Shown: positions 20,239-35,178 of the stretch, piece after piece
Numbering within the stretch: the first letter of the stretch is position 1
Layout of the letters: every line of letters starts with the position of its first letter
Origin: an uncultured Sphaerochaeta sp.
GTDB taxonomy: Bacteria; Spirochaetota; Spirochaetia; Sphaerochaetales; Sphaerochaetaceae
Direction of reading: 5' to 3'
Assembly: GCF_963677315.1 (NCBI RefSeq)
Contig: NZ_OY781939.1
Coordinates: 744,001-808,000, forward strand
Length of the DNA: 64,000 bases
The notes under the pieces: generated by a model
What the model was told of the DNA's origin: nothing
Database searches by the model: none
What the model saw: only the letters and a program-made list of their open reading frames with translations
Translations under genes and position numbers: made by a program

Positions 20239-20311
20239 GGTGGAAGTAGTTCAATGGTAGAGCACCAGATTGTGGATCTGGCTGTTGCGGGTTCGAGCCC
20301 CGTCTTCCACC
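20239..20311 (+). tRNA. tRNA-His (GTG)
   Basis: Full cloverleaf with anticodon GTG in the loop TTGTGGA. The extra G at position -1 and C73 are the tRNA-His identity elements. CCA is not encoded. Confidence 0.93.
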
Positions 20312-20328
20312 CTAACCGGGTCGTTAGC

Positions 20329-20402
<74 letters not shown>

Positions 20403-20433
20403 GAGGTTTGGTTTTTTGAAATTTTATTGTCAT

Positions 20434-20506
20434 GGGCCGCTAGCTCAGCTGGTAGAGCAGCAGACTCTTAATCTGCGGGTCAAAGGTTCGATCCCTTTGC
20501 GGCTCA
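20434..20506 (+). tRNA. tRNA-Lys (CTT)
   Basis: Cloverleaf with acceptor stem GGGCCGC/GCGGCTC (one G-U pair), anticodon loop CTCTTAA and A73. Confidence 0.93.
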
Positions 20507-20544
20507 ATACATGGCGAACCTCGCTAAGGGGCAAGACATGCACC

Positions 20545-20626
20545 GCGAGAGTGGTGAAATTGGCAGACACGCCAGACTTAGGATCTGGTACCTTACGGTG
20601 TAGGGGTTCAAGTCCCCTCTCTCGCA
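20545..20626 (+). tRNA. tRNA-Leu (TAG)
   Basis: Type II tRNA with a long variable arm, acceptor stem GCGAGAG/CTCTCGC, anticodon loop CTTAGGA and A73. Confidence 0.93.
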
Positions 20627-20667
20627 AAGGACAATCCAAGTTGGACTGTCTGGCAAAACGGTTTTTT

Positions 20668-20739
20668 GCGAAAGTAGCTCAGTGGTAGAGCTCCACCTTG
20701 CCAAGGTGGATGTCGCGGGTTCAAGTCCCGTCTTTCGCT
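20668..20739 (+). tRNA. tRNA-Gly (GCC)
   Basis: Acceptor stem GCGAAAG/CTTTCGC, anticodon loop TTGCCAA, T73. Last gene of the cluster, directly followed by a terminator. Confidence 0.93.
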
Positions 20740-24298: not shown

Positions 24299-24556
24299 TT
24301 TCAGGCTCCTTATATGTATGCTAGCAGACCGGTAGTATGCTGGCAATTGGATAAATACGCTCATTCCCCTAGACCAAAGCCTAAAAAGTTGCTATATACA
24401 ATGTGTTTCGGGTAAAAGGTTTTTGCAAGAATCCTGCTGACAGGGTGGTCGAAAATCAACTGTTTATGTATACTTAGCAGGATTACATTGCAACAAAGGG
24501 CTTTGCCTAAGGATATACATGGTCCAAAAGAGAGGACCGAAAAGGATGAACATAGG

Positions 24557-25906
24557 ATGATCGCTGATAAGAGTATCAAAGAATTGGAAAACTCCTCCGC
24601 CGCACTGACGGTCACTGTGACCGCTGACACCATCGAAAATGACTACCAGGCAGCTTTGAAAAAGTATGCTGCTGATGTCCAGATCAAGGGTTTTAGAAAG
24701 GGCAAAGTCCCTGTATCCGTTCTGGAAGGTAAGTTTGGTAAGGCGATTCGTGAGGAAAGTACATTCAATACCATCGAAGACGCATTGAAGGAAGCCTTGA
24801 CTGATGTTGAAGACAAGTACAAGCCGCTCTCCTTCAGCACCCCTGAGCTCCAGGACGAAGAGACCCTTCTCCCCTTTGAGGCCAACAAGGACATCACCTT
24901 CACCGTACACTACGACATTATGCCCATTTTCGAGACCCCGGAGTACAAGGGCCTGAAGGTAACTTACCCCAAGGTAGCACTGAGTGAAGAGGCAGTCACT
25001 GCTGAACTCGACAAGCTCCGTGAGCAGAATGCAATGGTCATCGACAAGGATGGCGCTGCTGAAATGGGCGACATTGTCACGCTTGACTATGTTGAACTGG
25101 ACGAAGAAAAGAACGAGGTTCCTGGAACCGAACGCAAAGAGTTCGTTTTCACCTTGGGAAGCACCACCAATTTCTACCAGATTGATGAAGATGTTGTTGG
25201 TATGAAGAGTGGGGAAGAGAAGGTTTTCTCCAAGACCTATGCAGAGGATTCAACGGTTGAGGGGTATGCAGGAAAGACCATCACCTTGAAGGTGAATGTA
25301 CAGAGTGTGAAATTCCGTGATATCCCTGAACTCGATGATGAGTTCGCACAGGATGTCAAGGAAGAGTACAAGACTGTCGATGACCTGGTGAAGGCAACCC
25401 GTGAGAAACTGCAGGGTGCCCTCGATGCAAAGCTCGAGAATGAAAAGCTGAATGCATTGAGTGAGGCTCTTCTTGAGAAGGCTACCATTGCTGTTCCCCA
25501 GAGCATGATCGACATGGAAGTTGAGCAGAGTTGGAAGCGTTATATCCAGCAGATTGGCCTGAGTGAAGAGCAGATCCTGCAATTCCTCAAGTTCCAGAAC
25601 CAGACAAAGGAAGATATCACCGCTCCTTGGAGAGAGGCTGCAGCAAAGTCACTTCGCATCCAGCTGATCATGGAAAAGGTCAAGGAAGCAGAAAACTTCA
25701 CTGTTGAGGAAGAAGAGTTGAACAAGGTTGTGGAAGAGCAGCTGAAGGATGTCACCGATCAGGCTCAGCGGGATTACTACCGCACCATGATCGAAGACGA
25801 CTTGCGCTTCCAGAAGATTGCACCGTTCTTGCAGGAGAACAACACGTTTGAGGAAGGCGAGGAAGTCGCTTACGAGACGTTTATGAGCGAAACCTACGGC
25901 GCATAA
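24557..25906 (+). CDS. tig: Trigger factor (ribosome-bound chaperone and prolyl isomerase)
   Basis: A 449-residue trigger factor. The N-terminal ribosome-binding loop is visible as GFRKGKVPVSVLEGKFG (the GFRxGxxP signature), then a PPIase (FKBP) domain around GDIVTLDYVELDEEKNEV, then the helical C-terminal chaperone arms. The start at 24557 matches the family N terminus; the frame opens at 24488, but nothing supports the extension. It precedes clpP and clpX as in many bacteria, joining folding with proteolysis of nascent proteins. TATACT at 24469 may be its -10 box. Confidence 0.94.
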   Translation: MIADKSIKELENSSAALTVTVTADTIENDYQAALKKYAADVQIKGFRKGKVPVSVLEGKFGKAIREESTFNTIEDALKEALTDVEDKYKPLSFSTPELQDEETLLPFEANKDITFTVHYDIMPIFETPEYKGLKVTYPKVALSEEAVTAELDKLREQNAMVIDKDGAAEMGDIVTLDYVELDEEKNEVPGTERKEFVFTLGSTTNFYQIDEDVVGMKSGEEKVFSKTYAEDSTVEGYAGKTITLKVNVQSVKFRDIPELDDEFAQDVKEEYKTVDDLVKATREKLQGALDAKLENEKLNALSEALLEKATIAVPQSMIDMEVEQSWKRYIQQIGLSEEQILQFLKFQNQTKEDITAPWREAAAKSLRIQLIMEKVKEAENFTVEEEELNKVVEEQLKDVTDQAQRDYYRTMIEDDLRFQKIAPFLQENNTFEEGEEVAYETFMSETYGA

Positions 25907-25936
25907 GCCGTAGATGCTCAAGAGTGCATAGTGTGT

Positions 25937-25969
25937 GAAAAGGCGGTTCCTCACTGGTTCCGCCTTTTC
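25937..25969 (+). terminator. Hairpin between tig and clpP
   Basis: A 10-bp perfect stem (GAAAAGGCGG/CCGCCTTTTC) with a 13-nt loop. There is no U run beyond the stem, so it may only attenuate or mark an RNA end between tig and clpP. Confidence 0.5.
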
Positions 25970-25998
25970 AATCCAAGCTACCAAAGGGGGCTTTTACC

Positions 25999-26604
25999 AT
26001 GAATATCCATCCCGAAAGGATGCAATCAAACATACCAATGGTCGTAGAGCAGTCAGGTGTAGGCGAAAGAGCCTATGATATCTTCAGTCGCCTGCTTAAA
26101 GATCGCATCATCTTCCTTGATGGGGAGATCAATGATGCAACAGCCGACCTGGTTGTAGCGCAGATGTTGTTCCTTGAGTCTGAGGACCCAACAAAAGACA
26201 TCAGTCTCTACATCAACAGCCCCGGAGGTTCCGTAACCGCTGGTTTGGCTATCTATGACACCATGCAGTACCTGCATAGTGACATCCAGACCATCTGTAT
26301 GGGACAGGCGGCAAGCATGGGTGCATTGTTGCTCTGTGCCGGGCAGGAAGGGAAGCGATTCATCCTCCCCTCTGCACGGGTCATGATCCATCAACCGTGG
26401 GGCGGAGTTGAAGGCCAATCATCCGATATCTCCATCCATGCCAAGGAGATTGGTCGTATTAAGAATCTTACCATTGATATCATTGCGAGACATACCCATA
26501 AGACCTATGAGCAGATCGCCAAGGATGTGGAACGAGATTTCTTCCTCGGTAGTGATGATGCTGTCTCCTACGGCATCGTCGATAGTGTTATGAGAAGGAG
26601 TTAG
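25999..26604 (+). CDS. clpP: ATP-dependent Clp protease proteolytic subunit
   Basis: A 201-residue ClpP serine protease. Ser106 in [11 protein letters not shown] and His131 in MIHQPWGG are two of the catalytic triad, with the aspartate in the [15 protein letters not shown] segment near residue 180. Fourteen subunits form the barrel that degrades proteins unfolded by ClpX, encoded 2 nt downstream. A good AAAGGGGG precedes the start. Confidence 0.96.
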
Positions 26605-26606
26605 TA

Positions 26607-27836
26607 ATGGCAAGAAATGCAAAAGTCTGCTCGTTCTGCGGAAAAAGCCAAGATGAGGTCAAGCGATTGATCAGCGGACCGGGTGTTGCCATCTGTGATG
26701 AGTGCATCAAGGTCTGTAATGATATGCTTGCCGGAGACCCAAGCTTCCAGGAGGAAGTGGTCGGTCTTCCCGAACACATCCCTACCCCTCAGGAACTGAA
26801 GGAGTACATGGATGAATACGTAATTGGCCAGGAAGATGCAAAACGGGTACTCGCGGTTGCAGTGTATAACCACTACAAACGCGTTAAATATCAGAAACAG
26901 ATATCAGAGCAAGGCGTCGAGCTTGACAAGTCAAATATCCTGATGGTGGGACCCACCGGTACTGGTAAGACATTGCTAGCCTCCACACTTGCAAAGAAGC
27001 TTCAGGTTCCCTTTGCTATTGCAGATGCCACCACGCTCACCGAGGCAGGATATGTTGGTGAGGATGTCGAGAACATACTGCTTAAGCTTATCCAGAATGC
27101 AAATGACAACATCAAGGCAGCTGAATTTGGAATCATCTTCATTGATGAGATCGACAAGATTGCCAAGAAGGGAGAGAATCCTTCCATCACACGTGATGTC
27201 AGTGGTGAAGGTGTCCAGCAGGCTCTGCTGAAGATCATCGAAGGTACTGATGCCTCAGTCCCTCCCCAGGGTGGACGCAAACATCCAAACCAGGAGATGT
27301 TGAAGATCAATACAAGGAATATCCTCTTCATCTGTGGTGGAGCATTTGTGGGGCTGGACAAGGTGATCGAGAAACGTGTTTCTTCCCATGCAATGGGATT
27401 TGGCGCAAGTATCATCAATGCCCAGGACAAGGACTTGCATACATTGTACAGCAAGTTGCTTCCCGATGATTTGGTGAAGTTCGGCTTAATCCCTGAGTTC
27501 ATTGGAAGACTTCCCATCCATGTTGCATTGGACAATCTTACCAAGAACGACTTGATGCGGATCATCCTTGAACCAAAGAACTCCATCATTCGCCAGTATG
27601 AAGCCTCATTCCGCCTGGATGGTATTGAGTTTGTATTCAAGAGTGATGCTGTTGAAGCTGTTGCAGAGAAAGCCTTTGAACAGAAGACCGGTGCCCGTGG
27701 ACTGCGCTCCATTGTAGAGAATGTGATGATGGGAATCATGTACGATATTCCTTCCATCAAGCAGGTGAAACAGGTAATCATCGGTCGAGAATGTGTCATA
27801 AATGGAGAACAACCTGAGGTTATCCGTGGAGCGTGA
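26607..27836 (+). CDS. clpX: ATP-dependent Clp protease ATPase subunit
   Basis: A 409-residue AAA+ unfoldase. The zinc-binding domain has Cys8, Cys11, Cys30 and Cys33; [11 protein letters not shown] is Walker [12 protein letters not shown]alker B, and the IGF-type ClpP-docking loop is within [11 protein letters not shown]. It delivers tagged proteins to ClpP. The DHH gene starts 1 nt after its stop. Confidence 0.96.
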
Positions 27837-27837
27837 A

Positions 27838-28824
27838 ATGTTCAGCTACCCCCCAATTGATGAAGAGATTCTTGCATTATTGAGAGATCGGGAAGAGTTT
27901 GTTGTCATCGGGCATGTCAGTCCCGATGGTGACTGCCTGAGCAGCCAGATGGCGATGAACTCCATGCTTCTGAAGATGGGGAAGACCGTCCATATGGCAA
28001 ATGCTGGGCCCTTTGATCGCTCTGAGATTTCCCATCTTCGCTCTGATTTTCTGAATCATATCGATGATGAGTTGAAACAAAGGGATCCACTGATAGTGGT
28101 GGTGGACTGTAGTTCACCAGAGCGTATCGGTCACCTTGCAGAGGAGATCGAGGGACTTACCACGGTGGTGTTCGACCACCACAGTAGCGGTGAGCAGTTT
28201 GGCACCTATCGCTATATTGTTCCCCGCTCGGTATCCACCACCTTGATCATCATGCAACTCTACAAAGCACTGGATGTTGAAATTTCCCAAGAGATTGCCG
28301 AGCACTTGTTCTTTGGGTTTGCCACCGATTCAGGATTCTTCCGCTTCATCAATGCATATCGTGGAGAGACGCTCCGCCTTGCGGCCGAGCTTGTCGACCT
28401 AGGGGTTTCCCCCAATGTCATGAATGACCGTATGACTGGTGGGAAGAGCTTCGGGTATATCAAGTACCTGGGAAAGCTTATCGATCGCAGTGAAAGCTTG
28501 TTCGATGGAAAGGTGATGATCTCTTCAAGTTGTCTTGAGGACAGCAAGCAATACATCACCACCGACAAGCCAAGCGATTCTCTCTACACCATGTTGCTCT
28601 CAGTACAGGGAGTTGAGGTAGTACTCTTCTTCAAGGAGCTGGAGGGGGAAAGAACTGAAGTAGGATTCCGTTCCTCTCACCAAAGCAGCATCAATGTGGG
28701 AGCCTTGGCTGAAAGCTTTGGAGGTGGTGGACACAAGAAGGCAGCTGGTGCCACGGTCAATAAACCGATACAGGAAACTAGGAAACTGCTTCTGGAAGCT
28801 GTTGAGAAAATGCTGAAAGCATAA
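27838..28824 (+). CDS. DHH/DHHA1 phosphoesterase (NrnA-like)
   Basis: A 328-residue DHH-family phosphodiesterase. GHVSPDGDCLSSQMAM gives the first metal ligands, VVDCSSPERIGH the second, FDHHSSGEQFG the DHH motif and SINVGALAESFGGGGHKKAAGA the DHHA1 GGGH signature. Such proteins act as nano-RNases and pAp phosphatases, or cleave cyclic dinucleotides (pApA); in a genome with cyclic nucleotide enzymes either is possible. ATG 27838 follows GGAG; the earlier ATG 27802 lies in clpX without a ribosome site. Confidence 0.88.
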   Translation: MFSYPPIDEEILALLRDREEFVVIGHVSPDGDCLSSQMAMNSMLLKMGKTVHMANAGPFDRSEISHLRSDFLNHIDDELKQRDPLIVVVDCSSPERIGHLAEEIEGLTTVVFDHHSSGEQFGTYRYIVPRSVSTTLIIMQLYKALDVEISQEIAEHLFFGFATDSGFFRFINAYRGETLRLAAELVDLGVSPNVMNDRMTGGKSFGYIKYLGKLIDRSESLFDGKVMISSSCLEDSKQYITTDKPSDSLYTMLLSVQGVEVVLFFKELEGERTEVGFRSSHQSSINVGALAESFGGGGHKKAAGATVNKPIQETRKLLLEAVEKMLKA

Positions 28825-28835
28825 CTTGGCATACA

Positions 28836-28883
28836 CATTGCATGGGTATGTGCATCATCCCACAAGGAGGCACCCATGCAATG
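28836..28883 (+). promoter_or_regulatory. Inverted repeat enclosing ribosome site and start codon
   Basis: A perfect 12-bp inverted repeat: CATTGCATGGGT (28836-28847) and its complement ACCCATGCAATG (28872-28883). The right arm contains the ATG at 28876. The 24-nt loop holds the AAGGAGG Shine-Dalgarno (28864-28870). In RNA the folded form would hide the start codon of the next gene. Confidence 0.65.
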
Positions 28884-29877
28884 GCTACCCATCTCTGCCA
28901 AGGAGAGCAAGATATTGACTGATCAGGTTGTTTGTTACCAGAAAGATCGGTCCAATACTACGCTCTATCATACAGTGCACAACAAGACACAACAAATTCT
29001 CTACTCCCTCCCCTATTATCTGCATTTACTTGAGGAAGAAGATCTCAGTGACTTTCTCTTGTACTGTTATAAAACCATTGATTACTATCTTACTTCATAT
29101 AGGATTGGCAGGTTATCCTACATAGGGTACCTCTCCCAGGTAGTACGTAAACGAACCAAATATTTCATCTCCCAGAAACAAGCGAATTCCATCAGGGACA
29201 GACTTATCTGCGAAATCGAGCCATTCACCAATGCTCAACTCTGGAGTGAGCCAGAGATGACCGCAGAGACTGCATCCTATACCACATTCAAAGACCTGCT
29301 GGTCTCACAGATGGACTCACTCCCTGAACTTTTCAATCGTCTTCTCTATGAACGTAAGGCTAGCCAAGAGGTGCTTGATGAACGTCTCCAAGAACTTAAG
29401 AGAGAGATCTCGACACCCGTGAACAGAAAACGATTTCTTATCGTGCTTACCCTGTCTCCAGGGCTTGCCAACCAACATTTGCTTGAGAAGCTTGCAGATA
29501 TTCTTGAAGTTGATTCACGTCTCCTCTGCCGGTATCTCAACACAGCAAACCTCATGCTAGAAGAGAAGCAACGATGCAAAGAAGCGTTCACCTCTACAAG
29601 CAACCGTCATTTCAGACGATTGCTTGAGATTGAGAATAGCCTTCAAACAGAGACTGATGCAAAGGTTCTCGAACGACTGGAAGCATTACGATGCTGGACC
29701 ATAGGAGTGTACAATACAAAAGTGACCCAGATAAGGAAGATGGAGTTCCGCTTGAGTCACCATCAAGTAGGAGAATTATTGCATATTCCCAAGGGAACCA
29801 TCGACAGTTCAGTACACTATATGAAGCGTGTTCTCTCTCAGTATATGGACGAACAATCTGACATTGAGTATCTTTAG
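28876..29877 (+). CDS. Sigma-like DNA-binding protein of unknown function
   Basis: I do not recognise a named family for this 333-residue protein. Residues 50-100 (EEEDLSDFLLYCYKTIDYYL, then GRLSYIGYLSQVVRKR) look like sigma-70 region 2, with an acidic helix, an aromatic linker and a basic RNA-polymerase-like helix. The C terminus, RLSHHQVGELLHIPKGTIDS, is a good helix-turn-helix of region 4 type. Between them lie about 150 unassigned helical residues. It is soluble and without cysteine pairs. Its start is inside a 12-bp inverted repeat, so translation may be controlled. It could equally be a helix-turn-helix regulator with a chance resemblance to sigma factors. Confidence 0.6.
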   Translation: MQWLPISAKESKILTDQVVCYQKDRSNTTLYHTVHNKTQQILYSLPYYLHLLEEEDLSDFLLYCYKTIDYYLTSYRIGRLSYIGYLSQVVRKRTKYFISQKQANSIRDRLICEIEPFTNAQLWSEPEMTAETASYTTFKDLLVSQMDSLPELFNRLLYERKASQEVLDERLQELKREISTPVNRKRFLIVLTLSPGLANQHLLEKLADILEVDSRLLCRYLNTANLMLEEKQRCKEAFTSTSNRHFRRLLEIENSLQTETDAKVLERLEALRCWTIGVYNTKVTQIRKMEFRLSHHQVGELLHIPKGTIDSSVHYMKRVLSQYMDEQSDIEYL

Positions 29878-29881
29878 GAGC

Positions 29882-30487
29882 ATGAATATTTTGTTGGCAT
29901 CAAACAATGAGCATAAGAAAGAGGAATTTTCCAGAATCCTAACCGGACATACCCTCATGCTCCCAAAGGAGCTGGGTATCGATTTTGACTTCGAGGAAGA
30001 GGCGGAAACCTTTAGCGAGAATGCACTAGGAAAAGCCAGGGCACTGGCATCCCAAGCTCCCGAAGGTTACAAGATCCTGGCAGATGATTCAGGCCTCTGC
30101 GTTGACGCACTCGATGGCAAGCCGGGGGTACGAACTGCTCGATATGGGCTCGAAACCTTCGGGCGAATGCTTGAGAGTGATGAGAGAAACGAGTTCCTCT
30201 TGAAAAACCTGGCTCACATTGAAAAGAAAGATAAGCGGAGCGCACAATTTGTATGTGCCTTGGCATTTGTGATGGACAGAAGAAGGGAGTTCACCTTCTG
30301 TGAAGCAGTAGATGGGTTTATTGCCAAAGAGAGTTACGGGAGGGGCGGTTTTGGGTATGATCCCGTTTTCATCGTGAAGGAAGCAGGAAGAACCATGGCA
30401 GAACTTACGGAGGATGAGAAAGACCGCTATAGCCACCGCGGGAAAGCTACCCGTCACTTGATTACCTTGTTAGGAGAAATTTCATGA
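29882..30487 (+). CDS. rdgB: dITP/XTP pyrophosphatase (RdgB/HAM1)
   Basis: A 201-residue house-cleaning nucleotidase that removes ITP, dITP and XTP from nucleotide pools. SNNEHKKEEF at the N terminus, ADDSGLCVDALDGKPGVRTA and GGFGYDPVF are the family's substrate-binding motifs. The start lies 4 nt after the upstream stop; the AGGAG is unusually close (1-2 nt), so translation may depend on coupling to the upstream gene. The end overlaps pepF in an ATGA. Confidence 0.94.
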   Translation: MNILLASNNEHKKEEFSRILTGHTLMLPKELGIDFDFEEEAETFSENALGKARALASQAPEGYKILADDSGLCVDALDGKPGVRTARYGLETFGRMLESDERNEFLLKNLAHIEKKDKRSAQFVCALAFVMDRRREFTFCEAVDGFIAKESYGRGGFGYDPVFIVKEAGRTMAELTEDEKDRYSHRGKATRHLITLLGEIS

Positions 30488-32265
30488 GTATACAGACACG
30501 AGCAGATCAACTTGAGCAGGATACCTGGGACCTTAGCAGTCTCTTCAAAGAATCAGCAGACTGGGAAGCAGCAACTGAAGCGATGAAACAACGTATCGCT
30601 GAGGCGCCTAGCTTGAAGGGCTCCCTTCAGAAAGGAAAAGAGTCATTCCTGGCTACCATGAGGTGGTATGAAGAGACAGGAATTCTTCTAGAACGTATCT
30701 ATAACTGGGCTTTCCTGGGGTATGCATCCGACGCCTCCGATAACACCAATGTCAAACGGTACAGCCTATCGGCCAGTCTCCTGAGCCAACTCTCTGCTGC
30801 CATGGCGTTCTTTGACCCTGAACTACTCGGTATTGCAGATGATATTATTGATGGATACCTGAACGATAAGGACTTTGCTCCCTACCGTGTCTATATAGAG
30901 AAAGCAAGACGTTTCAAGGCACATGTACTCACTGAGGGGGAGGAGCGCCTTCTCGCTCTGCAAAGCGAAGTTGCTTCCACACCCCGTTCCACGTTCAGCG
31001 ATTTGACCAATGTTGATTTTGACTTTGGTGAGATCGATGGAAAACCTCTCACCCAGAGCTCCTTGAGCTCGTTCCTCATGCAAGAGGATAGAGCAGTGAG
31101 GGAACGGGCTTACAGACAGTTCTATGCGGTGTATGAGAAGAGCAAGCATGCCATTGCAAGGCTCTACGAGGGACAGGTAAAGCAGGACATCTTCCGGGCC
31201 AAGGCAAGAGGATATGAGAGTTGCAGGGAGATGGCACTGTTCCCGGACAATGTTCCGGTATCCGTATATGACAACCTGATCAAGGCTGTCCACGATGCAC
31301 TCCCTACCCTTCATCGCTATTACAGGATGAGGGCGAAACTCCTTGGCTTGGAGAAGCTTTCCCATTGGGATGTCTATGTTCCCCTGGTAAAGGGAGTAAC
31401 CAGTGAAACCCCTTATGAAGAGGCAGTCTCCATGATTGGGTCAGCACTTGCACCGCTTGGCAGTGAGTATGTACAGACCATCACTGATGGACTGACAAAG
31501 GACAGGTGGGTAGACCGCTATGAGAACAAAGGCAAACGAAGCGGTGCATTCAGCAGCGGTACATTTACCAGCAAGCCCTATATTCTCCTTAACTACAAGA
31601 AGGACGTACTACGTGATGTCTTTACGGTAGCCCACGAAGGGGGACACTCAATGCATAGCTATTACAGTGCAAAGAACAATCCCTATTTCCACTATGACTA
31701 CACCATCTTCGAGGCAGAAGTTGCTTCTACCTTCAATGAGCAACTACTGGCCAAGTATATGATCGACCATGCCAGCGACGACCGAATGAAGGCCTATATC
31801 ATCGGAAAACAGATTGATGACATTGTGGCCACACTCTTCAGACAGACGATGTTTGCTGAGTATGAGATGATCATCCACCGGGAAGCCGAAGCTGGCGTAC
31901 CGATCACCCTCGAGTTGCTGAGAAGTGAATACCGTAAGCTACTGGAGCTGTATTTCGGCGACGGGGTGTCCTTTGCAGAGGAGAGCGACCTGGAAGGATT
32001 GAGAATACCTCACTTCTACAGCCCGTTCTATGTCTACAAGTATGCGACAGGATTAAGTGCATCCATTGCCCTCAGCAAGAAAGTGCTCAATGGGACAGAG
32101 CAAGACAGGCAATCGTACCTCGAATTCCTCCAAAGTGGAGGCAGCCTCTACCCCATCGAATCCCTCCAGAAGGCTGGTGTTGATATGCAGAAAGAGGAGC
32201 CAGTGAAGGATGCTCTTTCCACCTTCTCATCCCTTTTGGACCAAGCGGAAAGACTGCTCTCGTAA
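30484..32265 (+). CDS. pepF: Oligoendopeptidase F
   Basis: A 593-residue M3B zinc peptidase of normal length. HEGGH at 384-388 holds the two zinc histidines and catalytic glutamate, with the third ligand in the FEAEVASTFNE segment. It degrades peptides of 7-17 residues in the cytoplasm. No signal peptide is seen. It overlaps rdgB by 4 nt and is followed by a separate tRNA gene. Confidence 0.94.
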   Translation: MSIQTRADQLEQDTWDLSSLFKESADWEAATEAMKQRIAEAPSLKGSLQKGKESFLATMRWYEETGILLERIYNWAFLGYASDASDNTNVKRYSLSASLLSQLSAAMAFFDPELLGIADDIIDGYLNDKDFAPYRVYIEKARRFKAHVLTEGEERLLALQSEVASTPRSTFSDLTNVDFDFGEIDGKPLTQSSLSSFLMQEDRAVRERAYRQFYAVYEKSKHAIARLYEGQVKQDIFRAKARGYESCREMALFPDNVPVSVYDNLIKAVHDALPTLHRYYRMRAKLLGLEKLSHWDVYVPLVKGVTSETPYEEAVSMIGSALAPLGSEYVQTITDGLTKDRWVDRYENKGKRSGAFSSGTFTSKPYILLNYKKDVLRDVFTVAHEGGHSMHSYYSAKNNPYFHYDYTIFEAEVASTFNEQLLAKYMIDHASDDRMKAYIIGKQIDDIVATLFRQTMFAEYEMIIHREAEAGVPITLELLRSEYRKLLELYFGDGVSFAEESDLEGLRIPHFYSPFYVYKYATGLSASIALSKKVLNGTEQDRQSYLEFLQSGGSLYPIESLQKAGVDMQKEEPVKDALSTFSSLLDQAERLLS

Positions 32266-32293
32266 ATGTTGCACTCAAATTTCAAAAGAGGGC

Positions 32294-32321
32294 TTGACGA
32301 GCTCCCCGCCCTTGTTGTATT
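32294..32321 (+). promoter_or_regulatory. Possible promoter of tRNA-Leu
   Basis: TTGACG (32294-32299), 16 bp, TGTATT (32316-32321), 41 bases before the tRNA. Confidence 0.45.
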
Positions 32322-32362
32322 GTTGGCACGTTCACTTCAAGAGCGAACAATACTTCAAGAAT

Positions 32363-32447
32363 GCGGTAGTGGTGGAATTTGGTAGACACGCTAGCTTGAG
32401 GTGCTAGTGGGAGAAATCTTGTGCTGGTTCAAGTCCAGTCTACCGCA
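32363..32447 (+). tRNA. tRNA-Leu (GAG)
   Basis: Type II tRNA with long variable arm, acceptor stem GCGGTAG/CTACCGC, anticodon GAG, A73; CCA not encoded. It lies at the left edge of an AT-rich region, but no copy of its 3' end was found to suggest integration there. Confidence 0.93.
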
Positions 32448-33535: not shown

Positions 33536-35095
33536 CTATGCTTCTTCTACCGCAATGCCAAGCTTCCCGAGAATTTCCTTGTCTCGTTCATTCAGTTCAC
33601 TCCTATAAGGAGTATCGTTTTCCCTGAATGTAACTTCCTGGATATCCATAACTGTAAAAAGTGCCTGGCTCAGGCTGTAATCGGTATCTTCTAACTTTTC
33701 CAACAATTTCTGCCGGATGATCTCAGAGATGAGTTGGAGAAATACCCTACCAGGAAAATTCTGGGGAGACTGGATGTGCAGCAACCTGCAATCCTCCTGG
33801 TTCATAAGGTTATTGAATCGATGTTCAAAGTCATTGCGCTGTTCATACTTGGCAAGGGCTTGTTCTGCTGAGAGCCCTGTGTTCGTGATCACTGCCCAGA
33901 AACCCGCCTGGGAGGCTTCAAAGGTTCTCAGCGGGTCACGGCTTAGGCTGACCCTGTTACTTCCATTGGGGCGTTTTCGTACCTTGAAATAGGTTTCATA
34001 CAATCGGGCATGCTCCTCAAGAGGTACCTCAAACTCCAACTCTCGTTTACATCTCCCCAGCAAGGAGAGGAGATTGCTCCGCTGGTTCTCTCTCCACTGC
34101 TCATCATAATAGAGATGAATGGTAAGAGACTCCTCCTCCAGGAAGGGCGCAGAGAGACTCAGACTTCTCAGCTCCCTACCCTTGCAGTCATAGAGGGTAG
34201 CCCCCTCCACAATTTCATCACGATGCTTTTCAATGAATTGCTCCAACCATCTCTTTCGAGTTGGGATGCGGATAATGAACTGGTACCCCAGTTCCACCAA
34301 CTCCTGAATCCTGGGGACTGAGAAATATCTTCGATTGAGCATCAACACTGTATCGGTATCGACTTCCAACGTATCCATCACATTCGCAATGGTCTTGCTG
34401 CTGAGCATCGTCCCATCGAGAATCTGGAACGAGTATGGGAGGTGACTATCACCATGAGCAAGCAAGATGATGGTATTCTGTTCCAATGCCTCAATATCAC
34501 GGTTGTAACCGTATTGGAGAAATGGGTTATGGTTCTGATAACTGGCAGTACTGCAAAGGTCAAATATGATTTCGCTGGTATTCTCGTTAAAATTCTCCAG
34601 ACAACGTTGTCCCCAGATTCGGAGAAATTCAGCGTCCAGGGAGCGAAGAATTCCCTGCAGTTCTGTCAAACTCTCCACACTCGTATAGATTCCCTGTTTC
34701 CAATGGGTAGCATAGGAGATGGGATTGTTTGAACAGATCAGGTACCAAGCAAGATGCAGGAGTTTCTCCACCTTCTCCTCTCTCATGAGTGGCTGCATCC
34801 ACTCTCTCAGGCTGAGCTCCTTTTCAATGACTTCCTGCAACTGTTCAAACGCATAACGCCTAAAGGAAGGAATCGCTTTCACGGTCTCCGTTCCCTGACT
34901 CTCCAGCTCCTGCCGATATGCAGGATTGTAGATTGGCTCTCCAGTTACTCCATCAAGTTTACCTATACAACGACGTTTATGCCGTGTCTGCTTTTTATCT
35001 GGATCCCAGTAGTACTGGTCCTCATATAAATAGGTAACATGATTCTTCTTATTGACTATTTCAATGACTTTTGGGTGTGATAATCTCGAAACCAT
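33536..35095 (-). CDS. IS1634-like transposase, probably inactive
   Basis: A 519-residue DDE transposase of the IS4/IS1634 type. Recognisable parts are IIFDLCSTASY (first Asp), YGYNRDIEALEQNTIILL, the GYQFIIRI strand after the second catalytic position, and YEQRNDFEHRFNNL with the Glu. The expected second Asp, usually in a DRGF or DRGY context, appears as Asn254 in LNRRYFS, and the following Gly is Arg, so strand cleavage is doubtful. I found no terminal inverted repeats or target duplication. ATG 35095 was chosen over 35131 because MVSRLSHPK matches the usual opening. The ORF is otherwise intact, which hints at an old copy or a kept protein. Confidence 0.8.
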   Translation of the reverse strand: MVSRLSHPKVIEIVNKKNHVTYLYEDQYYWDPDKKQTRHKRRCIGKLDGVTGEPIYNPAYRQELESQGTETVKAIPSFRRYAFEQLQEVIEKELSLREWMQPLMREEKVEKLLHLAWYLICSNNPISYATHWKQGIYTSVESLTELQGILRSLDAEFLRIWGQRCLENFNENTSEIIFDLCSTASYQNHNPFLQYGYNRDIEALEQNTIILLAHGDSHLPYSFQILDGTMLSSKTIANVMDTLEVDTDTVLMLNRRYFSVPRIQELVELGYQFIIRIPTRKRWLEQFIEKHRDEIVEGATLYDCKGRELRSLSLSAPFLEEESLTIHLYYDEQWRENQRSNLLSLLGRCKRELEFEVPLEEHARLYETYFKVRKRPNGSNRVSLSRDPLRTFEASQAGFWAVITNTGLSAEQALAKYEQRNDFEHRFNNLMNQEDCRLLHIQSPQNFPGRVFLQLISEIIRQKLLEKLEDTDYSLSQALFTVMDIQEVTFRENDTPYRSELNERDKEILGKLGIAVEEA

Positions 35096-35178
35096 GTTAT
35101 AATTTATAGCATTCTTTTTTTCTTTAATCAAGAGTAAAGTACCCCTAGCAAACTATTTATACCGGACCATGTTATAAT
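35091..35178. repeat. Direct repeat of a 13-mer
   Basis: ACCATGTTATAAT occurs at 35091-35103 and 35166-35178, 75 bases apart. The first copy covers the transposase start codon on the minus strand; the second contains an extended -10 box for the ABC transporter. Confidence 0.8.
35170..35178 (+). promoter_or_regulatory. Extended -10 promoter of the amino-acid importer
   Basis: TGTTATAAT matches the extended -10 consensus (TGnTATAAT). No -35 box is needed or seen. Transcription would start near 35185, giving a leader of about 100 nt. Confidence 0.6.

What the first reader, a model, noticed from the sequence alone, without database searches (positions are those of the whole stretch)
28836..28883. 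Start codon of a sigma-like gene sits in a 12-bp hairpin with the ribosome site in its loop
The inverted repeat CATTGCATGGGT / ACCCATGCAATG is perfect, and its right arm contains the ATG at 28876; AAGGAGG is in the 24-nt loop. Folded RNA would hide the start codon, as in RNA thermometers or protein-controlled leaders. Its placement directly on the start of a putative regulator is unlikely to be chance.
Basis: partly seen in the sequence, partly recalled or inferred. Interest (0 to 1): 0.7.

Follow-up and report, generated by a model that had tools for sequence, protein, structure and literature searches.

The report
Sigma-54 promoter doubling as translation lock
In Sphaerochaeta bacteria a predicted hairpin covering the start of a sigma-factor-like gene shares its left half with a predicted sigma-54 promoter, so it likely silences messages that run in from the neighbouring gene, whereas messages begun at that promoter would lack half the hairpin and be translated.

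Summary
The inverted repeat is real (28836-28847 / 28872-28883) and is predicted to hide Shine-Dalgarno and AUG. But its left arm is also the -12 part of an exact sigma-54 promoter match, TGGCATACACATTGCA (28827-28842). That motif stands in all 23 Sphaerochaeta orthologues found (26 genomes searched), 1-8 nt after the stop codon of a co-directional DHH-phosphoesterase gene. A sigma-54 mRNA would start near 28853 and lack the left arm, so the hairpin could form only in read-through RNA from the tig-clpP-clpX-DHH side. Predicted cost of opening SD+AUG: 6.1-17.7 kcal/mol in read-through RNA, 2.1-6.4 in promoter-born RNA, the former higher in 23 of 23. The right-arm 8-mer is kept in 17 of 23 (at most one mismatch), in two registers relative to the start codon; the next two stem pairs co-vary. 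I read it as a promoter-embedded translation lock, as proposed for B. subtilis sigG and known for phage T4 gene e, not a thermometer. A profile of the unnamed sigma-like family matches 188 of 297 Spirochaetia genomes; 31 of 40 distant leaders chosen by me carry a sigma-54 motif (reversed control 0 of 40). All is computed; no transcript was measured.

The parts
28827..28842 (+). predicted sigma-54 promoter TGGCATACACATTGCA (-24 element TGGCA, -12 element TTGCA)
   Evidence: exact match to TGGCAYNNNNNTTGCW (G000:C1:772827-772842 = window 28827-28842); motif present in 23 of 23 genus orthologues; rpoN present in the genome
28836..28847 (+). left arm of hairpin, overlapping the -12 element; predicted to lie entirely upstream of the sigma-54 transcription start
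   Evidence: position relative to the -12 C (28841)
28853..28853 (+). predicted sigma-54 transcription start (+1), inferred as 12 nt after the -12 C; not measured
   Evidence: inference from the promoter motif and general knowledge of sigma-54 promoters (recalled)
28864..28870 (+). Shine-Dalgarno AAGGAGG, inside the spacer between the arms
   Evidence: folded
28872..28883 (+). right arm of hairpin, containing the ATG start codon
   Evidence: 8-mer ATGCAATG kept (at most 1 mismatch) in 17 of 23 orthologues, in two registers relative to the start codon
28876..29877 (+). sigma-like gene, 333 aa; unnamed family ('hypothetical protein'), weak sigma70-ECF similarity
   Evidence: TIGR02937 at E<=1e-3 in 11 of 23 members of alignment A1, 20 bits for this member against a cut-off of 42.9; family search
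27802..28824 (+). upstream co-directional DHH/DHHA1 phosphoesterase (NrnA-like) gene, expected source of read-through RNA
   Evidence: homologue (61-100% identity) whose stop codon ends 1-8 nt before the -24 element in 23 of 23 orthologous loci
24488..27836 (+). tig (24488-25906), clpP (25999-26604), clpX (26607-27836), same strand; no + strand terminator-like site between them and the lock
   Evidence: ORFs, names recalled from the sequences
29882..30487 (+). downstream rdgB/HAM1 gene
   Evidence: scanned from codon 2

Best explanation
The 48-nt element is most likely a promoter-embedded translation lock: a predicted sigma-54 promoter whose -12 region also encodes the left arm of a hairpin that would hide the ribosome site and start codon of the sigma-like gene only in RNA reading through from the upstream DHH gene. 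Shown by sequence: the promoter motif, the perfect arms, their overlap, the position of both relative to SD and ATG, the promoter motif in 23 of 23 Sphaerochaeta orthologues and the right-arm 8-mer in 17 of 23. Inferred: RNA starting at about 28853 lacks the left arm, leaves SD and AUG open and is translated; read-through RNA folds and is not. The result would be that the sigma-like protein is made only when sigma-54 and one of its activators fire, although the gene sits behind a tig-clpP-clpX-DHH gene run with no terminator-like site in front of it. Untested: the transcripts, the translation levels and the sigma activity of the protein.
For: (1) Exact sigma-54 motif TGGCAYRYACATTGCA 48-52 nt before the start codon in 23 of 23 orthologues found in 26 genus genomes; rpoN and eight strong sigma-54-activator-domain matches are present; the motif exceeds its reversed control in the genome (19 against 5) and in each of 8 relatives searched. 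(2) Predicted opening cost of SD+AUG: read-through 6.1-17.7, sigma-54 RNA 2.1-6.4 kcal/mol, read-through higher in 23 of 23; with about 95 nt more upstream RNA 7.5-16.4. (3) Shuffling the 27-nt left half: at most 5 of 100 shuffles reach the native value in 22 of 23 leaders; shuffling only -10..-1 with the promoter kept: at most 5 of 100 in 14 of 23. (4) The right-arm 8-mer is kept with at most one mismatch in 17 of 23 leaders although the start codon is its first ATG in 12 and its second ATG in 5, so coding does not explain it; stem positions 9+10 pair in 21 of 24 cells of 12 representatives against 15.2 expected, reached by 0.065% of permutations. (5) Re-pairing left and right halves of 8 clade representatives: 754 of 40320 permutations reach the native mean. 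(6) DHH homologue on the same strand, its stop codon 1-8 nt upstream of the motif, in 23 of 23; no + strand terminator-like site in 24300-32400. (7) Different hairpins in the same place in some distant relatives, e.g. L106, L123, L134; lock p<0.1 in 14 of 26 leaders behind a co-directional ORF and 0 of 6 behind an opposite one (this grouping was made after seeing the data).
Against: No transcript data: neither the start site nor read-through is measured. RNAalifold on the MAFFT alignment of 20 leaders found no such hairpin, only 3 pairs inside the promoter; I attribute this to the register shift of the right arm and the invariant left arm. Stem positions 11 and 12 show no excess of pairing (4 and 8 of 12; permutation fractions 0.38 and 0.21). 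Six leaders (L017, L018, L020-L023) have lost the ATGCAATG arm; L017, L018, L020 have another SD-hiding stem, L021 has no significant lock (35 of 100 shuffles reach it). With the promoter kept fixed 9 of 23 leaders are not significant, the window's own (L001) at 8 of 100. In the swap test left halves of other clades often do as well as the native one for a single right half (from 0 of 15 to 10 of 14), and three strongly SD-complementary left halves lock nearly any right half. The grouping written in the script beforehand (co-directional ORF within 60 nt) gave p = 0.15 on lock significance and 0.026 on gain.
Confidence: 0.63

Rival explanations
1. Only the sigma-54 promoter matters; the matching right arm is a by-product of start-codon context (AUG CAA UG) and shared ancestry, and the hairpin has no role.
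For: The left arm is fixed by the -12 element, so conservation of pairing needs only conservation of ATGCAATG; 6 of 23 leaders lack that 8-mer and stem positions 11 and 12 do not co-vary; total fold energy is ordinary; no RNAalifold consensus.
Against: The 8-mer is kept when the start codon moves from its first to its second ATG; positions 9+10 co-vary; L017, L018, L020, which lost it, have another SD-hiding stem; of five other sigma-54 motif genes of the same genome four have no significant lock.
Confidence: 0.18
2. The inverted repeat is a DNA operator for a dimeric protein, perhaps the sigma-like protein itself, that represses or tunes the sigma-54 promoter.
For: Perfect dyad overlapping a promoter motif; the 8-mer pair occurs at one place in the genome.
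Against: Arm-to-arm distance is 34, 35, 39, 40 or 43 bp among the 17 leaders that keep the arm, up to about half a helical turn or more apart, which a rigid DNA-bound dimer would tolerate poorly; co-variation outside the 8-mer; the second arm stays on the SD/start region.
Confidence: 0.1
3. RNA thermometer or protein/ligand-controlled leader, acting on the main mRNA.
For: SD and AUG predicted hidden in a hairpin; neighbouring genes look like clp protease genes, and another sigma-54 motif lies before an Hsp20-like gene.
Against: The main predicted mRNA lacks the left arm; predicted opening cost is 12.3 at 37 C and 9.3 at 55 C; no Rfam family matches here.
Confidence: 0.07

Closest known systems
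Bacillus subtilis sigG (spoIIIG) read-through hairpin
   Same: A sigma factor gene behind a co-directional operon; a large hairpin (20+ pairs) is proposed to block translation of read-through RNA from PspoIIG and cannot form in RNA started at PsigG (PMC5942855, passages seen).
   Different: There the gene's own promoter is a sigma-F/sigma-G promoter and the host a firmicute; here the left arm itself contains the -12 element of a sigma-54 motif and the product is an unnamed, diverged sigma-like protein.
Phage T4 gene e early/late mRNA switch
   Same: Long early transcripts fold and hide the start; [quoted passage not shown] soc, 49 and I-TevI are named there as further hidden starts). This is the same anatomy.
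   Different: Phage genome with a phage late sigma factor; here a bacterial chromosome and a sigma-54-type promoter.
Borrelia burgdorferi rpoS long and short transcripts
   Same: Spirochaete sigma gene with a sigma-54 promoter giving a short mRNA; a 121-nt longer RpoD-promoter mRNA needs its SD exposed (PMC12472547 and PMC11109971, passages seen).
   Different: The long RNA is opened by the small RNA DsrA(Bb); the gene is rpoS, not this family; no overlap of hairpin arm and promoter is described in the passages I saw.

Membership tests
sigma-54 (RpoN) promoter | TGGCAY-N5-TTGCW with the 24/12 spacing, upstream of a gene | tested here: met
   exact in the window and in 23 of 23 orthologues
sigma-54 (RpoN) promoter | rpoN and sigma-54 activators in the genome | tested here: met
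   PF04552 177 bits (control rings in 4 of 14 genomes); PF00158 10 matches, 8 with E below 1e-46 (this AAA family rings in 14 of 14 controls, so only the strong matches count)
sigma-54 (RpoN) promoter | transcription starts about 12 nt after the -12 element and depends on RpoN | not testable with these tools
   no transcript data
read-through translation lock (T4 gene e / B. subtilis sigG type) | hairpin hides SD/AUG in the long RNA | tested here: met
   by energy prediction only
read-through translation lock (T4 gene e / B. subtilis sigG type) | gene's own promoter lies so that its RNA lacks the 5' strand | tested here: inconclusive
   left arm 28836-28847 lies before the predicted +1 at 28853, but the start site is inferred, not mapped
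read-through translation lock (T4 gene e / B. subtilis sigG type) | read-through RNA exists and is poorly translated | not testable with these tools
   supported only by synteny and absence of a terminator-like site
RNA thermometer | marginal stability that melts in the growth range | tested here: not met
   predicted opening cost 12.3 at 37 C, 10.6 at 48 C, 9.3 at 55 C
known Rfam leader families | score at or above gathering cut-off | tested here: not met
   six matches in the window, all tRNA; nothing in L001, L014, L016 with E<=1
sigma-70/ECF sigma factor (encoded protein) | match to curated sigma model at its cut-off | tested here: not met
   TIGR02937 20 bits against 42.9 for this member; at E<=1e-3 in 11 of 23 members of alignment A1 (21 genus proteins plus L026 and L030), best 4.7e-08; Pfam sigma model in 1 of 23, none for this member
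sigma-70/ECF sigma factor (encoded protein) | sigma fold | tested here: inconclusive
   profile against PDB sequences: 12 of 13 matches at E 0.01-0.9 are sigma region-4 stretches; AlphaFold2 model mean pLDDT 79, pTM 0.46, all helical; 0 Foldseek hits at E<=0.001

The most novel reading that the evidence does not exclude
Across the class Spirochaetia an unnamed sigma-like protein family, often syntenic with a DHH phosphoesterase gene, is a core sigma-54 target (a Borrelia-like RpoN-to-sigma cascade with a different second sigma), and in Sphaerochaeta the sigma-54 promoter has been fused with an RNA lock, so that one 50-nt sequence is at once promoter, ribosome site and silencer of all RNA not started by sigma-54.
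Probability: 0.42. Interest if true: 0.75.

Novelty: new variant of a known kind. Interest (0 to 1): 0.62.

Why it matters
If true, start-site choice alone decides whether a regulator is translated: the promoter sequence is re-used as the 5' strand of a silencing hairpin. This would shield a regulator that sits behind constitutive genes and show how such genes can live inside operons. It also points to a class-wide sigma-54 target of unknown function, a handle on what sigma-54 does in free-living spirochaetes. In the library I searched, 0 papers hold both 'Sphaerochaeta' and 'sigma-54' and 1 holds 'Sphaerochaeta' and 'RpoN', a Borrelia paper seen in the listing only.

Tried and rejected
RNA thermometer: rejected on predicted stability. 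Known RNA family: none. DNA operator: made unlikely by arm distances of 34-43 bp. Intrinsic terminator: the hairpin is not followed by a T run and no + strand terminator-like site was found in 24300-32400 (four sites, all on the - strand). General property of sigma-54 leaders: tested on five other sigma-54 motif genes of the same genome; only L045 reached p 0.025, the others 0.12-0.85, against 0.010 for the lock gene. On the RpoS-like sigma gene, 2 of the 20 leaders analysed had 5 of 100 shuffles reaching the native value, the other 18 more, so no lock is claimed there. RNAalifold gave no hairpin. Fold search gave nothing at E<=0.001. Literature searches for a sigma-54 example: 1 paper, not relevant; 27 papers, 10 listed, none of the 10 relevant by title; listings only. 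A first genome pattern with too short a spacer found nothing; one search used 20-40 nt. In one search, 7 of 40 distant leaders were dropped before the lock count: L111, L115, L126, L130, L140, L141 (weak motif, spacing or SD) and L145 (predicted start beyond the SD). The 40 were chosen by me among the matches listed that reach the N-terminus, to cover many families, sometimes two or three per family. mis-framed L107 and L129; one search corrected this and the motif count stayed 31 of 40.

Full report
OBSERVATION. Of 13 inverted repeats listed in the window it is one of two that are perfect and have a spacer, and its 8-mer core pair with 20-40 nt between occurs at one place in the 3.5-Mb genome. 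The overall fold of the 121-nt region is not remarkable (z -1.29, 22 of 200 shuffles as good). The predicted accessibility of the start is: 12.3 kcal/mol to open SD and AUG, the highest of 28 SD-bearing genes of the window by my crude gene calls (median 4.0, next 8.9), with the largest contribution from the upstream half (8.0, next 5.2).

THE SETTING. The gene 28876-29877 encodes 333 aa, follows a DHH/DHHA1 phosphoesterase gene (27802-28824) and precedes rdgB/HAM1, all on one strand behind tig, clpP and clpX (the last three named by me from the sequences). The terminator scan of 24300-32400 found four sites, all on the - strand.

THE KEY FINDING. The upstream regions of the 23 orthologues found in 26 genus genomes show that the left arm is not free RNA sequence. 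All 23 carry TGGCAYRYACATTGCA, an exact sigma-54 promoter match with the 24/12 spacing, 48-52 nt before the start codon. In the window this is 28827-28842; the -12 C is 28841, so transcription is predicted to begin near 28853. The left arm lies wholly upstream of that. The genome has rpoN and ten sigma-54-activator-domain matches, eight of them strong (this domain family also rings in 14 of 14 control genomes, so the weak ones mean little). The motif occurs 19 times against 5 for the reversed pattern, with an excess in each of 8 relatives too.

TWO RNAs, TWO STATES. For each of the 23 leaders I folded the read-through form (from just before the -24 element) and the sigma-54 form (from +1). Opening SD and AUG costs 6.1-17.7 kcal/mol in the first and 2.1-6.4 in the second, and the first is higher in 23 of 23. 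With about 95 nt more upstream RNA the read-through cost is 7.5-16.4. Since any longer RNA folds more, I shuffled the left half while keeping the right: at most 5 of 100 shuffles reach the native cost in 22 of 23 leaders (L021: 35 of 100). Keeping the promoter bases and shuffling only -10 to -1 is a harder control: at most 5 of 100 in 14 of 23 leaders; the window's own leader 8, L011 43, L012 72. So in some clades the promoter element alone supplies most of the left arm.

IS THE PAIRING SELECTED? The right-arm 8-mer ATGCAATG is kept with at most one mismatch in 17 of 23 leaders; in 12 of these the start codon is its first ATG, in 5 (L008-L010, L014, L015) its second. The same letters thus serve different frames and UTR positions, which coding does not explain. 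Position 9 is paired in 12 of 12 representatives (G-C or A-T), positions 9+10 in 21 of 24 cells, reached by 0.065% of permutations; positions 11 and 12 show no excess (representatives of one clade are not fully independent). Re-pairing left and right halves among 8 clade representatives reaches the native mean in 754 of 40320 permutations, but for single right halves foreign left halves often do as well (from 0 of 15 to 10 of 14). Six leaders lost the 8-mer; L017, L018 and L020 have instead CCTTGT(GG)...(CC)ACAAGG, which hides the SD directly. RNAalifold on a MAFFT alignment of 20 leaders saw no such hairpin; I think because the right arm shifts register and the left arm does not vary.

NOT A THERMOMETER, PROBABLY NOT AN OPERATOR. 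Predicted opening cost is 12.3 at 37 C and 9.3 at 55 C. Arm-to-arm distances of 34, 35, 39, 40 and 43 bp among the 17 leaders with the arm argue against a rigid DNA-bound dimer.

WHY HERE? In 23 of 23 loci a homologue of the window's DHH protein (61-100% identity) is encoded on the same strand and its stop codon ends 1-8 nt before the -24 element. The promoter is wedged between two co-directional genes, so read-through of a housekeeping run is expected. By contrast the RpoS-like sigma gene of the genus also has the sigma-54 motif (20 of 22 leaders by pattern, the other two by eye in the printed sequence); in the 21 loci printed a sizeable same-strand ORF ends 137-191 nt before it (shorter ORFs nearer in three; crude ORF calls), and 18 of the 20 leaders analysed have no significant lock. 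Among five other sigma-54 motif genes of this genome only one (L045) reached p below 0.05.

BEYOND THE GENUS. A profile of the protein matches 188 of 297 Spirochaetia genomes at E<=1e-8 (83 of 112 genera; many of the listed matches cover only one half of the profile, and I did not exclude other sigma-like proteins among them). In a protein search the 66 hits carry no Pfam domain, and nearly all source names read 'hypothetical protein'. I took 40 leaders, chosen to cover many families: 31 have a sigma-54 motif with at least 10 of 11 specified letters, none has the reversed control. Of 33 that could be folded, 9 have a lock at p<0.05 and 14 at p<0.1 (Fisher combined 4.3e-6, treating them as independent), with unrelated sequences, for example a hairpin of 11-12 pairs with a 4-nt loop ending on the ATG in L106, whose left arm runs from about -7 to +4. 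A DHH homologue is the next upstream ORF in 21 of these 33. Locks at p<0.1 occur in 14 of 26 leaders behind a co-directional ORF and 0 of 6 behind an opposite one, a split chosen after seeing the data; the split set in the script (co-directional within 60 nt) gave p 0.15 on lock significance and 0.026 on gain. So the sigma-54 motif is class-wide, the lock only partly so.

WHAT THE PROTEIN IS. Weak sigma-70/ECF similarity: TIGR02937 at E<=1e-3 in 11 of 23 members of alignment A1 (21 genus proteins plus L026 and L030), below the curated cut-off for this member; a Pfam sigma model in 1 of 23; sigma region-4 stretches in 12 of 13 PDB sequence matches at E 0.01-0.9. AlphaFold2 gives an all-helical model of moderate confidence without a Foldseek match at E<=0.001. 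Sigma-like is a fair label; sigma activity is unproven.

COMPARISON. The same logic is proposed for B. subtilis sigG (PMC5942855, passages), where a hairpin blocks read-through RNA and cannot form in RNA from PsigG, and is documented for T4 gene e (PMC3014915, passages), whose late promoters lie in the stretch encoding the 5' strand of the hairpin. Borrelia rpoS has a short sigma-54 mRNA and a 121-nt longer mRNA whose SD is exposed by DsrA(Bb) (PMC12472547, PMC11109971, passages). This element appears to work like these; it differs in that a sigma-54 -12 element is itself the hairpin arm and in the gene it controls. My searches for a sigma-54 example (1 paper; 27 papers, 10 listed) showed nothing relevant. 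Verdict: known as a principle, new as an instance and as a variant, and attached to a widespread sigma-54 target that I did not find described.

Noticed in passing
L033 (G000:C1 about 543258-544190) and orthologues L066-L087: A second sigma gene, RpoS-like (TIGR02394 298 bits, below the proteobacterial cut-off), has a sigma-54 motif 44-52 nt before its start in the 20 genus leaders matched by pattern and, by eye, in the 2 others fetched: a possible Borrelia-like RpoN-to-RpoS cascade in Sphaerochaeta.
   Followed up: partly
L044 1000-1560 minus strand (G000:C1 about 2.2049-2.2052 Mb): Two tandem candidate sigma-54-driven small RNA genes about 240 bp apart, each with a U7 run, a CUCC(U) stretch and a GC-rich terminator-like hairpin; sigma-54 motifs 240-360 bp apart in twos or threes also appear in G001, G002, G003, G005, G017, G018, G019. 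No Rfam match above gathering.
   Followed up: partly
L050 and L043: Sigma-54 motifs lie 67 nt before an Hsp20-like gene and 168 nt before an RlmE/FtsJ-like gene (the latter behind one of the candidate small RNAs), hinting at a stress role of sigma-54.
   Followed up: partly
class Spirochaetia: Unnamed sigma-like family: profile matches in 188 of 297 genomes, a DHH gene next upstream in 21 of 33 leaders checked, a sigma-54 motif in 31 of 40 leaders; three small genomes of genus g29 (family f19) are among those without a match.
   Followed up: partly
window 33536-35131 minus strand: 531-aa ORF that looks like an insertion-sequence transposase (recalled resemblance, not searched).
   Followed up: no
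window 20240-20739 plus strand: Cluster of five tRNA genes; a sixth lies at 32363-32447.
   Followed up: no
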